Positions 18,812 through 33,681 of a stretch of 64,000 nt of DNA are shown here, in pieces; position 1 is the stretch's first letter, and every line of letters begins with the position of its first letter. The translations under genes were made by a program, and so were the position numbers. The DNA is from Pyropia haitanensis (Eukaryota; Rhodophyta; Bangiophyceae; Bangiales; Bangiaceae). A model generated the notes under the pieces. It was not told where the DNA came from and searched no databases. It saw only the letters and a list, made by a program, of their open reading frames with translations. The stretch covers positions 877,501 through 941,500 of the forward strand of contig SDUX01000006.1 of the NCBI GenBank assembly GCA_008729055.1. Direction: 5' to 3'.

Positions 18812-19864
18812 AAGGACACACCACGACCACCACAGTGTGTTTCAAAAATTGCAATGGACACAGCAACTTTCGTGAACAAGACGCAACGAGGTTTGTAGGA
18901 CTTTCTCTTTGCTCAGTAATTTCTGGTCAGTCGCGCGCCGATGCGGTGCGCGCAGCATGCACACGGCCGCGCGCCCCCACCACACTCTCCACCGCGAGCG
19001 ACGATGGCCACCCGCCCGCTGGGCCCCGCCGGTCTGCGTTTATCCCCGAGCCCCGCCCCCCCCCCTCCGCAGCGCGGCCGCACTGCCGCCAGTTTTCCCC
19101 AATCTTCTAGGCGCTCATGCAGGTGACGGGGGGGAGGTCAGGCACGGAGACGCCCATCCGCTTCGCCGTCACCGCCTCTGATGCTCTTGTCCCCCTGCTC
19201 CGTATTTATTTCTCTTCTCGCTCGTTTTTTTTCCCGTGCCGCGTCACGGCGCTGCCGTTCCCGCCGCTCGCCCCTCCCCTGTCTTCGATCAAGGCAACGA
19301 GCACCACCACCGCCCCCGCGGCGCCCACCTCCCTCCTCCGTCCTCTTTCCCACACACTACCGACACTGCGTCATGCACTGGCTGTGGTGGTGGGCGGTGC
19401 GAGCAGCACCGTCGCCGCCGTCGCCCCGTCCGCCGTCTGTCACATCCCGGCTACTACCAGCCGTCGTGCCGTAACCGCCCCGCTGTTGACGCGTCACGTT
19501 CTCGCACTTCGGCAGCCACTGCGGCTGACCCACCGCAGCAGCAACAACAGCTGGCGTACTTTTCTTTTCTTCCTTCTCTTGTCCTCTTTCTGCTCCTTGT
19601 CACCCTGTCACCTGTTCCAGCCTGGGGCACTGAGCTGACCGCCGCTGTGGAGGGTCACGCCCTTACCGGTCCCCAGCCTCCCACTCTCCCCCGGCGGTGC
19701 TTGCGGCTGACCGCGCCGCCCCTGCCACCTCTCACCTCTGGTGAGCTCCCCCGGGCTGCCCCTCGCCTCGGGCGGCAGTCTTGTTTCCTTTGACACGTGC
19801 CACGTTAGCTCTCGCGTCGCACCCCCTTCCACCTCACCCCTTGTGGTGCACACCAATAACAGCC
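18812..19864. other. Upstream region and probable 5' leader intron of the RING gene
   Basis: No conserved protein. A pyrimidine tract with many TTC/CTT ending CACCTGTTCCAG at about 19562-19620 is an excellent 3' splice site. A TATA-like GTATTTATTT lies near 19201. Both suggest that the RING gene has a non-coding or short first exon and a leader intron. Confidence 0.35.
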
Positions 19865-21201
19865 ATGGGGGATGGTGGGTGTTTCACCCTGGATCCCTCT
19901 CTCGGCGGCGAGGCGCCACCGTCGCCGACGTCGGTGGCCACCGCGGCGGTGGCGGGCGGTGGCGGCAGCGGCGGCAGCGGCGGCGGCTGCGTCGCCGGCG
20001 CCGGCGGCCGGGACACGCCGTTTGGAGACGCGCCACCTGCGGGAGCCACGCTCGTTGGTCTGACGGCCTACACCCGAGGGCCTCGGCTAGTAGGTATCCG
20101 CGGTCTCTACGCTCCGGCGGCGGCGCCGGCGACGACAGCGGTCGCGCCCGCAGCAGCGACCGCGGCGACGGCAGTGGAGAGAGTCTCTGTGGCGGCGGTG
20201 GCGGCGGCCCAACCGACGACACGCGGACGGCTACACGGCCACGGCGGGCGTCCCCACCGGCTGGCGCTCCCTTCCGGCGACCTGTCATTGCGCATATGGC
20301 GTGACACGGCGGGGGTGTGTGGCGTGCGCGTGCGGGCGGTGGGCCGGGGTGCGCCAAGGGGGAACGGCGGCGCCGGCGGCAGCGTTGGACTCCGCGGCGG
20401 CGATGCGACGGAACTGTTACCAGAGGGGGGAGGGGTGGCGCGCCTGTGGGGGCACCTCGATGCGGATGGTCGCCTCGCCGACCTGCGCGCCGACGCGTCG
20501 CCGGGGGGGGAGGCGACGTGGGGGGCCAACGCCGTCGCCGCCGCCCCTATTGGCAGTGACGCGGGGGGCACCGGCGGCGACCTGCCTGGCGCCGTCGGCG
20601 TGCGGCTGGTGTTGGCCGCCGCCGGCAGTGGCGACGACGGCGACGGTACCAGCGGTGGCAGTGCCTCCCCGTGTCCGTTTTGCGGGTGGGTGGCGGGGGG
20701 AGCGTATCCACCCCCCGACCTGCCCCCGTCGGCGCACGAGGCGGCGGCGGTGGGCGACCGCGCCGTCCACGTCCTCCGCTGCATGGACGCTCGCATCGCC
20801 GCGCGGGCGGCGGCGGGGGTGGGTGCCGTACCATCGCTGACGGCGGCCGGCGGCGGCGACGGTGACGAAGTTGGTGCGGCGGACGCGGCCGCCGCCGCCG
20901 CGGCGCGCCTCGCCGCGACTCCCTTCCCCCCCGGCGACGCGGCGGAGCTGCGCGCCGCCCTCGTGGACGCGCGGGCGGAGATCCGGCGCCTCCGCGCGAC
21001 GTTGCCGCCCGCCGCCGCCGCCGCCGCCGACCGGCGGCGGTGCGTGGTGTGCCGCGACGCGGACACCGCGGTGGTGCTCCTCGGCTGTGGCCACGCGGTG
21101 CTGTGTGGGGGTTGTGCGGCGGCGGTGGTGGGGGGGGGGGGGGGTGCCCGCTGTGTGGGGGGCGCATTGAGCGCGTGGCCCGCGTGTTTTTTGAGAGCTG
21201 A
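19865..21201 (+). CDS. RING-HC E3 ubiquitin ligase candidate
   Basis: The start ATG 19865 sits in a good context (ACAGCCATGG). The first two thirds form a Gly/Ala-rich region with an ordered stretch around LALPSGDLSLRIWRDTAGVC, then a CPFCGW pair, a helix with heptad leucines (AAELRALVDARAEIRRLRATL) and a C-terminal C3HC4 RING: CVVC, LGCGHAVLCGGC, then CPLCGGRIERVARVFFES. The last CPLC pair and the natural stop TGA 21199-21201 are reached only if one base is added in the 15-G run 21130-21144; the literal frame runs on into unrelated sequence to about 21703. Known of the family: such terminal RING-HC domains recruit E2 enzymes and ubiquitinate substrates. The substrate is unknown. Confidence 0.8.
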
Positions 21202-21985
21202 GTCCCAGTGGGTCGCGTGGGGGGAGGGTGCGAAACCGCACGAGTTATTGGGTCACTTGCACCTCCAAGAGAGAGGACCCGAGGAGCGCCGTTTGTCTGC
21301 CCATGCCGGCTGTCCCGGGACGACCACCGCGCTCGCAGGGCCCGCCCACGCAGAGGTACCCTTGCCGTCGGGTCCCAGGTCCCTTTCTCTGTACTGTGCT
21401 CCAGTCCACCCAACGGGTGTGGGCAGTTGTCGTCATTGGACGTGGGGGGGGGGGTGGGGCAGGGTGAGGTGTTTGACCTGCCATTCTGCGTCGCGGTCAG
21501 GCGGCCGGAGGTCGTTGGCGGGTCGCCACAAAGGCGCCGCGTCCCGGCGAGTATCCGACTACCGCGGATGCCACGCAGCTCGGTGTTGGGGACTGATGGG
21601 GTGGTGGGGTGAGGGACGGTCGGGCAGGCGGGGTGGCGCGGAGAATCCCGCACAGGTCTGGGGAGCGCTTGGGGCGTCTGTCGTTCACACAAAGGCGATG
21701 TAGACGGGTCAAGCTGGCGCCGGTCGCAAGCGAGGAGCACCTCACCCCCTCGCTCTCACTCATAAATACACAACAGTGGCGCCCTTGGTGCGCCCACCAC
21801 CCGGTCGTCAGCTAGGGCTACGGACAGCCTCCCCCACCTCCGCGGCGTTGACGCTCGTTAGCGCACCACGGTGACGCCACTGACGCGCCACGCAACGAGG
21901 CAGAGCAGGTCCCCCACGTACTACCCTCTCGTGCACAGCGTCATCCCCCCGCTCCCCCCGCTCCCCCCCCGGCACTCCATGTCCC
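21202..21985. other. Intergenic
   Basis: 3' flank of the RING gene and 3' flank of the convergent minus-strand gene. An A/T island CTCATAAATACAC lies near 21757-21769. It is TATA-like on either strand, but no gene starting from it was found. Confidence 0.35.
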
Positions 21986-28398: not shown

Positions 28399-29577
28399 TC
28401 ACGCCGCCGCGGCGGCGGCGGCCCACGGGGCGGCGGCGGCCGCGCGGCGCCCCGCCCCCCCCGTCACGCGCGCGCGCATGCCCGCGGCGGCCAAGTCGGC
28501 GGCGGCGGCCCCCCACACCCCCCCGTCCCCCCCCGACCCCACCACCTCGAGCACCGTCACGCCACCCGGGTAGGCGCTGCCGCCCGCCGCGTCGGCGGTG
28601 CCGCCGCCGGCCGTGCCGCCGGGCGCCAGCAGCAGCAGGCCGCCACCACCCCCACCCCCGCCGCCGCCGCCACCGCCGCCCGTGGCGCTGACGGGCGTCA
28701 GGCCGTCTGACAGCGCCGCCACGTACAGCCGCGTGACGCCGCCCGGCCGCACCACCAGCGGCGGCCCGTTGCAGTGGATGTGCCCCGAGACGGTGGCAAA
28801 CACCGGCCGCGGCGGCGGCGGCGGCGGCGGCCGGCCGCCCGGCACTGGCGGCGGCGGCGCGGGCGGCCGCGGCTCGAAAAAGAGGTGCAGGCTGGCGGCG
28901 GCCTCGTCATCGGCGCCCGCGGCGCGGACCCCCCCCACGGCGGCCGCGTCTGGGACGAGGTCCGCGGCCGCCGCAACGACGGACAGCACGCCAAAGAGGC
29001 CGCTCGACGCGGCGCCGGCCGCGGCGGCGTAGACGTGCCCGGCGACGGCGCCGGCGCCGGGGCGGGGGCCCGCGGCGGGGGGGACCGCCCACGTGGCGGT
29101 CCACGTGCCGCCGGGGGGGGCGGGCGAGCCGCTGCTCGACGCCGGCTCGCCGAGGTCGGGGATGGACAGCGCCAGGGGGCCGCCGAGCCCGTTGGTCACC
29201 ACCAGCGTCAGCTGTCCGCCGACGACCGCGTGCAGGAGGGGGCCCACCAGCCGGTCTGGGGTGCCGCTGCCGGTCACGGGGCGGACACCGCCGCCGCCGT
29301 CGGCCGCGGCGGTCATCCGAAAGGCGGCCTTGCCCGGAAACGCCGTGCGCACCGACGGCGGGAGCGCGCGGCGGGCGGCGCTGCCGTTGGCGCCCGCCGC
29401 CGGCGGGCACGCGTCCACCCGCAGCGGCGCGTAGTCCCAGTCGACGGGCGTCGCGGTGAGGTGGTAGGTGCGGGTGGCGGCGGGGGGGGGGGCGCCCCCG
29501 CTGGGGGGGGGGGCGGGCCGGGCATGGGCTCTTTGGGTGCCCACGGCGGGAGCACCCCGGGGGTGGGGGGGGCGGAC

Positions 29578-29626
<49 letters not shown>

Positions 29627-30813
29627 TGCCGCCGCCGCTGTTGGCGCCAGTGGCCCACGGCGGCAAGACGGCCACACCGCCGCCGCCGCCGCCGCCACCA
29701 CTGCCCGTGTGCCACGGCGGCAAGACGACCCGGCTGCCGCCGCCGCCGCCACCACCGCCGCCACCACCACCGCCACCGCCGGGCGCCGCCGCCGGCGCGA
29801 CGGCCGGGCGGGCGGCGGCGGCGGCGGCGGCCGCGACCGGCCACGCCGCGATCATGCCCTTGGCCACGTGCCCCGGCGCGCCGCAGCGGAGGACGAGGCG
29901 CCCCCCCCCCCCCCCCCCCGGCGTCACGGTCAGGCTGGTGAAGAGCCCCGCCAGCAGCGGCTCGGCCGACGACAGCGCCGGGCGGGGCCCCCGCGGCGGG
30001 GCGACCCCCCCCCCCGCGGCGGCCCCCCCCGCCAGCAGCGTGTGCACGTCCGCCTCGGAGCCGAGCGTGTAGGCGGCCAGCGAGACGGGCGCGCCCGCCA
30101 CCAGCGGCGGCGCCCGCGCGCCGGCCGCGGCGCCCGCGCAGTAGAGCGTGCCGCCGAGCGTAAACTTGCGGTGCGCCGCGGCGGCCGCGGCGACCGCGTC
30201 GGCCGCGGCGCCCGGCGCGGGGGGCGGCAGGTTGACCCGCGCGTGCAGGCTGAGCGCCTCGTCCAGGATGCCGACAAAGAGCGGCGTCGGCGGCGGCGGC
30301 CGCGCGGGGCGGGCGGCGGCGACCGCCGGCGGCCGCGGGTAGACGAGGAGCACACCAAAGAGCCCCGCGGCGGTGTCGGCCACCTCGGCCACGTGCGAGT
30401 GGAGGAGCCACACCTTGCCGCCGCCGGCGCGCGCCTCGGCCGGCCCCGGCCCGGACCGGTCGGGCACCCCCCACGATACCGTCACGCGGTCGCCGACCGC
30501 GACCGCGTCGTCGGCCGCGTCGGCGCCGGCCGTGCCGTCGGCATAGGCGGCGCCCTCGGCGGCCTTTTCGTACCGCAGGCCGTGCGGGTGGATGGACACG
30601 CGGTGGGGGGTGGCGTCGAGGCTGCCGCCAGCGTTGAGGAGCGTCACCTCGACGGTATCCCCGACGGTGGCGGTGAGGAGCGGGCCGCCCAGGCCGGGGG
30701 GGATGCCCCCGGCAGAGCCGGGGGGGGGGGGCGCCCGCACCGTAAACGTCGCGTCCGTGTAGGCCACGTAGACGGTCTTGACGTAGGACGCGCGCGGCAG
30801 GGGCGCCGCGCCC

Positions 30814-30853
<40 letters not shown>

Positions 30854-32720
30854 GCGGCGGCGGCTGGCGGCGACCCGCCGCCATGGGCGGCGACACGATC
30901 GCGGCCTGCGCCGCCGTGTAGGGCTCCCCCGTGCACGCGTTGACGCCGCCGTCGCCCGCGGTGTAGTCCCACGCAACCTGCTCCGCGGCGAGGTAGTAGC
31001 GGCGGGTGGTGCCGGTGAGGGGGGGGGGGGGGGGGCGCCAGACGTGTCGACGCGGTAGAGCAGCGCCATGCCTGTTGGGAACGGGGGGGGGGGGGCACGG
31101 CGGGAGGGGGTCGGCAGGGGGGCGGGGGGGGGGGGGGGCGGGGGGGGGGGGGGGGGGGAAAGAGGGGGGCGGTGCACCCCGACGCGGCCGTCACGGGCGC
31201 GCCAAGGCAGCGGCCGGGGTCGGCGGCGCCCACGGGCGGCAGGACGCACGGGGCGGGTGGGTCGTCAGTCGGCCATACCATCGGGCGGCGCCCACCGCCA
31301 CGGGGCGGCACGCGCGGCGCCGCCCCCACGCCTCCCCACCCCGTCTCGCACGACCGACTCCCGCTGGCGCGACCCACCGCCATGGGCGCGTCGCACCCCC
31401 CCCCCCCCCCAACCCCCCCAGCCACGTCCCCCCCCCCCCCCCCCAACCCCCCCCAACCCCCCCCCCCCAAACCGTACCCGCCGACACGTGGTCATTCAGG
31501 TGGCAGTGGCCAAACCAGACGCCCGGCACGTCGGCGTGGACGGCGAGCGTCCCCCCCCGGCCCGGCACGAGCGGCAGCACGTCGGTGTGCCCCCCCCCCC
31601 CGTCCGGCCCGTCAGGCCGTGCAGGTGGAGCGTGTGCACGTCGCGGCGGGCGGCGGCGGCGGCGCCGCCCGCGGTCAGCGCGTGCCACAGCGTCGGCGTG
31701 GCGGCGCGGAGGCGCCAGCGGCGGCCGTGGCAAAAGAGGCGGCCGTTGATGGCGTGGAGGAGGTTGGCCTCGGCGCCTTCCGGGGGGGCCGCCACGCGCA
31801 GGGGGGGGGGGAGGAGGGGGGGGGGGGGGGCAGGGGGGGGGGGGGGACGCCAGCGGTGACCGCGACTCGTCGTGCACTTGGAGGAGCGTAAAGACGTGCT
31901 CGTAGCCTGGGGGGGGGGGGGAGGCGGCCGTGGAAAGGGGGGGGCGGCACCACAGCACAGGGGGCGGCACCACAGCACACAGGGGGAGGGCGCCCACGCG
32001 GTCAGCGGGTCGGCCGTGCATCCGTGCCGCGGCGGCGGGCGGGCGGGCGGGCGGGCGGTGGTGGCGGCGGCCGTGGCGGCAGCGGCCGCCGCCGGCGGCG
32101 GCGGCGGGACCCGGCTGGCGGGCCCACCCGCGCGCGCGTGCGCGCGCGCGTGCGCGGCACGGGGCGGGGCGGGGCGGGCGCGGCGGCGGCGGCGGCGGGC
32201 GGCCGCCCCCCCCCCCCCCCCGCGGCGGACCCCCCCCCCACCAACGCAGGCCCTCCCCTCCCAACGCACCCGGCGGCATCCCCCGCGCGTCCGCCTCGGC
32301 GGCGCGCGTCACGACGAGGGGCCCGATGAGCCCCCCCCCCCCCCCCCCTCCCCCCCCGTATACACGTGCACCGCCGACGGCGTGTACGGCCCGCCCGCCG
32401 CCTCGGGCGGCACCCAAAAGTACGACGTCCCGACCGCGCCGGGCGCCACCGCCGCCGCGTCGCCGCCGCCGCCGGCGGTGCCGTTGCCGCCGGCGGTGCC
32501 GTTGTCGCCGGCGGTGCCGCCGCCGCCGCGGCGGGCGGCCAGCCGCAGCACCCCCGCTGGCTCAAACGTGACGGCAAACGGCGTTGCCGCCGCGACGGTC
32601 ACGGCGAGCACCTCCCCCGTCGCGGCGTAGAGCGGCGGCCCGAGGAGGCCCAGCGGCGACGCGGCGGCGGCAGCCGCGGCGGCGGTGGTGGGAATGGCGG
32701 TGGTGGCGGCGCCACCGGCA

Positions 32721-32760
<40 letters not shown>

Positions 32761-33681
32761 CGGCGTCCCCCCCCCGGGCGGCTCCGAGGCGGCCAGCCCG
32801 GCGGGCGGCGCGACGGTTGTGAAGGTCGCGTCGGTGTAGGCGGTCCACACCGCCTTGGTGTAGACGCTGCCGCGGCCTGGCGGCCGCGCCGCCGCCGCGC
32901 ACGCGTCGGCGCCCGCGTCGGCGGCGGCGGCCGCGGCGGTCGGCGGGGGGGCGTCGCGCAGGTAGACCGCCTCGTCGGGCGTCAGGGGGCGGCCGTAGCA
33001 CGCGTGATAGTTGCCCAGGGGGGCGTAGTCCCACTCGATGAGGGAGGCGCGGAGGAAGTAGGACCGCGTGGGGGGGGGATCCCGCAAGGGGGGGGGGGGG
33101 GGGGGGTCCGCTCCGTTCCCGCCGCCGCCACCGCCGCCGCTACCGCCGCCGCCGCCGCCACCGCCGCCGCTACCGCCGCCGCGGCGGCGGCACCGGCAGT
33201 CGGCCGTGTCACCCGCCGCGGCGCCCTCCGACAACAACAGCGGCGACGGCGGCGCCGTCGGTGGGGCGCCGCCGCCGTCGCGGCGGCGCCGCCCATGGCG
33301 CGCGGCCGCCGCCGCCGCCGCCGACGCGCGGCGGCGGCGGCGGCGGCGGCGGGACGCGGCGGGACGGCCGGCCCGGCCCGCCCGTGCCGCCGCGGGGTGC
33401 CGCCACGGGGCGGCGGCGCGCCGCGAGGCCGGCCGCGGTGGCGGCGGGCGGGTGGGTGTGTGCAGCGTGTGGGCGCAACACTGTTGGGGGGGGAAGGGGG
33501 GGGGGGGGGGGGGGGATGGGACGTTGGTGTGGGGGGGGGGGGGGGGGGGGACGAGCGGGGGCCGATGGCGCCGCCGACGCCGACACGGCCGGCGGTCGAC
33601 GGCGGCGCGCACCCGCAGCGCGTACACGCGTCGGCGCGGTGCGCGGCTTCCACTCTTTTTTTTTTTTGCCGCGTGCCTCAT
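28399..33681 (-). CDS. Six-domain ceruloplasmin/hephaestin-like multicopper ferroxidase
   Basis: Predicted to oxidise Fe(II) at the cell surface for iron uptake, as known for ceruloplasmin, hephaestin and algal FOX1. Domain order on the minus strand: D1 (about 33060-32270; SYFLRASLIEWDYAPLGNY, VYTKAVWTAYTDATFTTV, GLIGPLVVT) without copper ligands; D2 (31906-31478; YEHVFTLLQVHDESRS, DVHTLHLHG, VWFGHCHLNDHVSAGM) with His-Cys-His; D3 (31071 to about 30350; YYLAAEQVAWDY, SIHPHGLRY, WLLHSHVAE, GLFGVLLVY); D4 (to about 29860) with C-x5-H-x4-M; D5 (YHLTATPVDWDYAPL); D6 lacking the type 1 Cys. Two introns fit exactly: 32269-31907 (GTGCGT..CAG) and 31477-31072 (GTACGG..CAG), both phase 1. Frames change at G/C-runs 32767-32775, 32331-32348, near 31800-31850, 31590-31601, 31021-31035 and 29482-29513. 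The N-terminus before D1 is unresolved; no clear signal peptide is seen. Stop TGA 28399-28401. Confidence 0.8.

What the first reader, a model, noticed from the sequence alone, without database searches (positions are those of the whole stretch)
28399..33681. Ceruloplasmin-like ferroxidase with copper-cluster ligands in domains 2 and 3 instead of 1 and 6
In ceruloplasmin the trinuclear cluster sits between D1 (two H-x-H motifs) and D6 (H-x-x-H-x-H plus H-C-H). Here D2 carries DVHTLHLHG and GHCHLNDHVSAGM, and D3 carries SIHPHGLRY and LLHSHVAE, while D1, D5 and D6 have lost these ligands and D4 keeps only a C-x5-H-x4-M type 1 site. The pattern is what a circular permutation of the six-domain ring would give: the cluster interface is D2-D3. 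That would be an independently wired ferroxidase fold.
Basis: partly seen in the sequence, partly recalled or inferred. Interest (0 to 1): 0.75.

Follow-up and report, generated by a model that had tools for sequence, protein, structure and literature searches.

The report
FOX1-type copper ferroxidase, red alga
The gene encodes a red-algal relative of the green-algal iron-oxidising enzyme FOX1, whose copper cluster sits between domains 2 and 3 instead of 1 and 6 as in human ceruloplasmin; that layout was already described for algae in 2013, so the gene is a new member of a known family.

Summary
A minus-strand gene (about 33.1-28.4 kb) encodes six cupredoxin domains. All four trinuclear-cluster (TNC) motifs lie in D2 (HTLHLHG; GHCHLNDHVSAG|M, the Met supplied across a GT-AG intron) and D3 (IHPHG; HSH). 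D4 keeps a type-1 site; D6 has lost its own.

The novelty does not hold. Of 118 proteins scored, 41 (the named ones all algae) have at least 3 of 4 TNC motifs at D2/D3; 76 (the named ones all animals) have them at D6/D1. The same genome holds four more apparently complete copies of this type.

Circular permutation is rejected. A phylogeny of two-domain units fits neither the permuted nor the collinear correspondence with animal proteins (AU p <= 8e-4 in two data sets). It favours independent triplication of a two-domain oxidase in algae and animals, each keeping a different one of three equivalent interfaces. The gene is probably a diverged FOX1-type paralogue with one type-1 copper fewer; ferroxidase activity is inferred. 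In passing: two database proteins keep complete His sets at D2/D3 and D4/D5 at once.

The parts
28399..33117 (-). FOX1-type six-domain multicopper oxidase gene; stop at 28399; true N-terminus unresolved, probably upstream of the poly-G run 33088-33106
32270..33117 (-). Exon 1, domain 1: TNC slots empty (VTFEPAG, HVYTGGE); contains frame changes at G runs
31907..32269 (-). Intron 1 (GT-AG, 363 nt), splits the Gly codon of MPP-G-YEHVF
31478..31906 (-). Exon 2, most of domain 2
31616..31642 (-). D2 motif DVHTLHLHG (type-1 His plus two TNC His)
31476..31511 (-). D2 motif GHCHLNDHVSAG (type-1 Cys and His, two TNC His; Asp before the type-1 His as in the D6 iron site of ceruloplasmin); the last two bases belong to the intron, the Gly codon being split
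31072..31477 (-). Intron 2 (GT-AG, 406 nt); same place and phase as the intron of the C3 paralogue; joins HVSAG to the axial Met
28399..31071 (-). Exon 3: axial Met of D2, then D3 to D6; frame changes at the C runs near 31019-31035 and 29482-29513
30570..30596 (-). D3 motif SIHPHGLRY (two TNC His)
30384..30407 (-). D3 motif LLHSHVAE (two TNC His)
30042..30044 (-). D4 type-1 His (EADVHTLL)
29853..29885 (-). D4 type-1 loop CGAPGHVAKGM (C-x4-H-x4-M)
29496..29852 (-). Glycine-rich D4-D5 linker with three LPPW repeats
28681..28710 (-). D6 slot of the type-1 His, lost (SDGLTPVSAT)
28477..28521 (-). D6 type-1 loop, Cys and His lost (GVWGAAAADLAAAGM)

Best explanation
The gene encodes a secreted or membrane-anchored FOX1-type six-domain multicopper oxidase of a bangialean red alga. 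Substrate electrons (most likely from Fe(II)) enter at the type-1 copper of D2, or at D4 and pass on to D2; they cross the Cys of the D2 HCH motif to a trinuclear cluster held by four His of D2 and four of D3, where O2 is reduced to water. Fe(III) would then go to an FTR1-type permease; the genome has three such matches, none on this contig. Ligand identity and order are shown. Copper loading, electron route, substrate and location are inferred. The D2/D3 placement is shared by the algal FOX proteins examined: a two-domain oxidase was triplicated into a ring with three equivalent even-odd interfaces, algae kept D2/D3, and animals, after their own triplication, kept D6/D1. This paralogue has further lost the D6 type-1 copper.
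Against: No transcript or protein data. The model changes frame at six homopolymer runs, so a pseudogene is not formally excluded. The branches are long and FOXw_U2 is misplaced in both trees. Of the ceruloplasmin iron-site residues only the Asp before the type-1 His was checked: the window gene has it in D2, not in D4, so the iron substrate is uncertain. P0122 ends in D3 and cannot confirm D4-D6. FTR1 matches are on other contigs. The own-genome search for copies used a D3-D4 piece and two Pfam families only.
Confidence: 0.82

Rival explanations
1. Circular permutation: the algal ring is the ceruloplasmin ring with shifted termini, so algal D2/D3 descend from the same ancestral domains as animal D6/D1.
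For: Against human ceruloplasmin (4enz, 1kcw, 2j5w) the best-scoring stretch pairs the query's D2 with D6, and against factor V it pairs D3 with A1; these scores include the shared ligands.
Against: Against rat ceruloplasmin (5n0k, 5n4l) the best stretch pairs D2-D3 with D2-D3 instead. With ligands and 3 flanking columns masked: AU p = 1.3e-8 with 10 algal-type and 6 animal proteins and 1.6e-6 without red algae, LG+R4. Animal U1-U3 form one clade with FastTree support 1.000 with or without the mask. Mean identities of algal to animal units show no shifted match.
Confidence: 0.03
2. Differential loss from one six-domain ancestor with three trinuclear and three type-1 sites (the scheme in PMC3600357): algal and animal domains correspond one to one.
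For: Same fold; residual motifs at lost interfaces in some proteins; published scheme (passages).
Against: The collinear constraint has AU p = 3.9e-6 and 9.2e-9. It would need within-protein homogenisation of units after the split. Only site-homogeneous models on 283 columns were used.
Confidence: 0.15
3. Decaying pseudogene: a FOX copy losing copper sites and frames, with the C3 and C10 paralogues doing the work.
For: Six frame changes in the model, lost D6 type-1 site, glycine expansion, long branches.
Against: The frame changes lie at G/C runs; P0122 is continuous at two, perhaps three, of them; ligand motifs in D2-D3 and splice sites of both introns are intact; the D3 region is 77% identical to P0122.
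Confidence: 0.12
4. An oxidase for another substrate (Cu(I), Mn(II), phenols) rather than a ferroxidase.
For: D4 lacks the Asp before the type-1 His and D6 is dead, so at least part of the ceruloplasmin-type iron sites is gone; remote six-domain relatives include the Mn oxidase MnxG.
Against: D2 keeps that Asp (HCHLNDH); the characterised algal relative FOX1 is described as an iron-uptake ferroxidase (abstract of PMC4259311 in the listing).
Confidence: 0.3

Closest known systems
Algal FOX1/FOX2 (Chlamydomonas) and the Dunaliella salina ferroxidase
   Same: Six cupredoxin domains; TNC His in D2 and D3; type-1 site in D4 (literature; named green-algal relatives).
   Different: The D6 type-1 site is lost here; long Gly/LPPW linker between D4 and D5. 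FOX1 itself was not in my alignment; C. reinhardtii XP_001693036.1 (P0036) was.
Ceruloplasmin, hephaestin, HEPHL1
   Same: Same six-domain ring, judged from the relative P0002.
   Different: Their TNC lies between D6 and D1; the domains do not correspond one to one in the unit tree.
Bacterial MnxG-type six-domain oxidases
   Same: TNC reported at D2/D3, with type-1 copper in D2 only (literature, passages).
   Different: Not compared by sequence here.
Two-domain multicopper oxidases (small laccases; P0123, Caulobacter L031)
   Different: Two domains per chain; active as homotrimers (PMC3738974, passages).

Membership tests
FOX1-type algal six-domain multicopper ferroxidase | Six cupredoxin domains in three units with W-D-Y odd-domain starts | tested here: met
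FOX1-type algal six-domain multicopper ferroxidase | H-x-x-H-x-H and H-C-H in D2, two H-x-H in D3, none at the other interfaces | tested here: met
   class (4,0,0)
FOX1-type algal six-domain multicopper ferroxidase | Type-1 sites in D2, D4 and D6 | tested here: not met
   D2 and D4 present, D6 Cys and His lost. The D6 Cys is also gone in 5 others of the 41 D2/D3-type proteins (P0044, P0072, P0074, P0110, P0111), so I treat this site as variable within, not defining for, the D2/D3 type.
FOX1-type algal six-domain multicopper ferroxidase | Its units group with red and green algal units in a unit tree | tested here: inconclusive
   FOXw_U1 groups with red-algal U1 and FOXw_U3 with C10/P0002 U3 in both trees; FOXw_U2 is misplaced in both (long branch)
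FOX1-type algal six-domain multicopper ferroxidase | Fe(II) oxidase activity, iron-deficiency induction, partner FTR1 | not testable with these tools
   three FTR1 matches exist in the genome, on other contigs
Ceruloplasmin/hephaestin | TNC between D6 and D1 | tested here: not met
   0 of 4 motifs at D6/D1
Circularly permuted ceruloplasmin | Algal U2/U3/U1 sister to animal U1/U2/U3 | tested here: not met
   AU p = 1.3e-8 and 1.6e-6
MnxG-type Mn oxidase | Sequence relation to MnxG | not tested
   no MnxG sequence compared

The most novel reading that the evidence does not exclude
Six-domain ferroxidases are not one lineage: the ring arose several times by independent internal triplication of a two-domain ceruloplasmin-like oxidase (algae, animals, and separately the lineages of P0006 and P0007). 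Each ring then kept a different subset of three equivalent clusters. P0006 (D2/D3 8 of 8 His, D4/D5 8 of 8, D6/D1 7 of 8) and P0007 (8, 8 and 6 of 8) would be living rings with two or nearly three oxygen-reducing clusters in one chain.
Probability: 0.5. Interest if true: 0.6.

Novelty: new member of a known kind. Interest (0 to 1): 0.3.

Why it matters
For the window itself: it adds a diverged red-algal paralogue to the FOX1 family and shows a copper site that can be dropped. More widely: the place of the cluster (D2/D3 or D6/D1) looks like parallel symmetry breaking in a three-fold ring, and the two multi-cluster proteins found on the way make the old idea of a ring with three clusters testable in living proteins.

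Tried and rejected
Protein search with the window model over D2-D4 found nothing (7977 candidates scored), I think because low-complexity words filled the candidate list; the C10 paralogue and a D3-only region worked. The first unit split was wrong (units 2 and 3 merged by a motif typo), so the tree is discarded; replace it. Circular permutation and a single collinear six-domain ancestor were tested and rejected or disfavoured. FTR1 linkage was sought and not found. Pfam scans of 16 of the 60 ORFs of 300 aa or more gave one RING finger (window 19781-21700) and nothing else at E <= 0.001. Pfam scans of six pieces of the gene matched PF07731 above its cut-off in D2 and PF07732 below its cut-off in D3. 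The species was not identified. In the listings I saw no paper on a Porphyra or Pyropia six-domain ferroxidase, in a library that lacks most subscription papers; PMC4460010 (passages) had nothing on it.

Full report
What is there. The finding lies on the minus strand of a GC-extreme contig (G000:C7; the genome has 52.9 Mb in 136 contigs). The coding sequence runs through three frames from about 33117 to the stop at 28399. Two changes are GT-AG introns: 32269-31907 and 31477-31072. Six further frame changes in the model lie at G/C homopolymer runs. The P. vietnamensis protein P0122 is continuous at two of these places and perhaps at a third. The window holds 172 single-base runs of 8 or more, 167 of them G or C, so run-length error or polymorphism is likely; I cannot prove it.

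The ligands. In a family alignment the window protein has the TNC motifs in D2 and D3 only. I scored 118 proteins by regular expressions: 113 of the 122 database hits listed (nine shorter than 880 aa were dropped), plus the window model, the C3 copy and three C10 copies. Result: 35 with 4 of 4 motifs at D2/D3 and none elsewhere; 4 more with 3 or 4 at D2/D3 and at most one elsewhere; 2 with 4 at D2/D3 and 4 at D4/D5; 76 with 3 or 4 at D6/D1; one with 2 at D6/D1. Some entries lack D1 (the C10 copies were entered from D2 on; their D1 exon, seen, has no H-x-H at these places), so 'none elsewhere' is untested at D1 for them. Among rows that bear a species name in the listings, the D2/D3 type is algal and the D6/D1 type animal. 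One search found 201 proteins, listed 120 and scored only the 7993 candidates sharing most words, so the counts are lower bounds. The four-motif order occurs in 0 of 20000 residue shuffles of the model protein.

Known already. PMC3600357 (passages only) says that the TNC histidines of the Chlamydomonas and Dunaliella ferroxidases, and of the bacterial six-domain oxidases analysed there, lie in domains 2 and 3. The same passages say that no protein with a cluster between D4 and D5 had been described.

Same genome. A D3-D4 search of the genome found the window gene, one copy on C3 and a cluster on C10. C10 holds three apparently complete copies and one locus with a match to the first unit only. 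The C3 copy and the three C10 copies keep type-1 Cys and His in D2, D4 and D6; the window copy has lost both in D6. The D6 Cys is also missing in five other proteins of the 41. In ceruloplasmin an iron ligand, D1025, directly precedes the type-1 His H1026 (PMC3738974, passages). At that place the window gene has Asp in D2 and Gly in D4; the C10 copies have Phe, Asp and Asn in D2, D4 and D6; the C3 copy has Asp in all three. The paralogues thus may use different entry sites; this is inference. Three FTR1 permease matches exist, none on C7.

Permutation or not. I cut 27 six-domain proteins into two-domain units and added one bacterial two-domain protein (81 units in all, one first unit being absent). 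I masked the 12 ligand columns with 3 neighbours on each side and built trees with and without the mask. Animal units 1-3 form one clade (support 1.000 in both). P0006's three units group together, and so do P0007's. Most algal units group by position, but the window's U2 is misplaced in both trees, and in the masked tree the red-algal U3 are misplaced too. Without red algae (7 named green algae and the unnamed P0040; LG+R4) the values are 9.2e-9, 1.6e-6, 7.6e-4 and 0.51. The sequence search alone is ambiguous: human ceruloplasmin pairs query D2 with D6, rat ceruloplasmin pairs D2-D3 with D2-D3. Independent triplication is the reading the trees favour; later homogenisation of units within a protein is not excluded, and no mixture model was run.

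How it most likely works. Electrons enter at the D2 (or D4) type-1 copper, pass by the Cys of HCH to the D2/D3 cluster, and reduce O2. Shown: the ligands and their order. Inferred: copper content, path, iron as substrate, and surface location. I put an active oxidase at about 0.8 and an iron substrate at about 0.6.

In passing. P0006 (1275 aa, eukprot) has complete His sets at D2/D3 and D4/D5 and 7 of 8 at D6/D1. P0007 (1265 aa, JGI, listed with PF03351) has 8, 8 and 6 of 8. Their units are 58-61% and 49-54% identical to each other. I searched for papers on proteins with two or three trinuclear clusters (6 of 6 papers listed, 10 of 30 listed); in these listings I saw none that bears on it but PMC3600357.

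Noticed in passing
database proteins P0006 and P0007: Six-domain oxidases with complete trinuclear-cluster His sets at both D2/D3 and D4/D5, and 7 of 8 or 6 of 8 His at D6/D1: candidate rings with two or three clusters.
   Followed up: partly
unit trees: Animal and algal six-domain ferroxidases look like independent triplications of a two-domain oxidase, against the published single six-domain ancestor.
   Followed up: partly
L016-L019, contig C10 4.426-4.488 Mb of the own genome: Cluster of three apparently complete FOX1-type genes, very alike by eye, and one locus with only a first-unit match.
   Followed up: partly
P0123; L031 (Caulobacter sp. S45, 76% identity): Bacterial two-domain ceruloplasmin-like oxidase, listed with PF02630, a model for the repeat unit.
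   Followed up: partly
P0036 (XP_001693036.1, Chlamydomonas): PMC3600357 (passage) says this protein lacks the D2 mononuclear site; in my alignment it has both D2 motifs (HNYHWHG, HCHVNQHMGGGM).
   Followed up: no
29496-29852: Glycine-rich D4-D5 linker with three LPPW repeats.
   Followed up: no
window 1-64000: 172 mononucleotide runs of 8 or more, 167 of G or C; in this gene the frame changes sit at such runs.
   Followed up: partly
19781-21700: ORF with a RING finger (PF13920).
   Followed up: no
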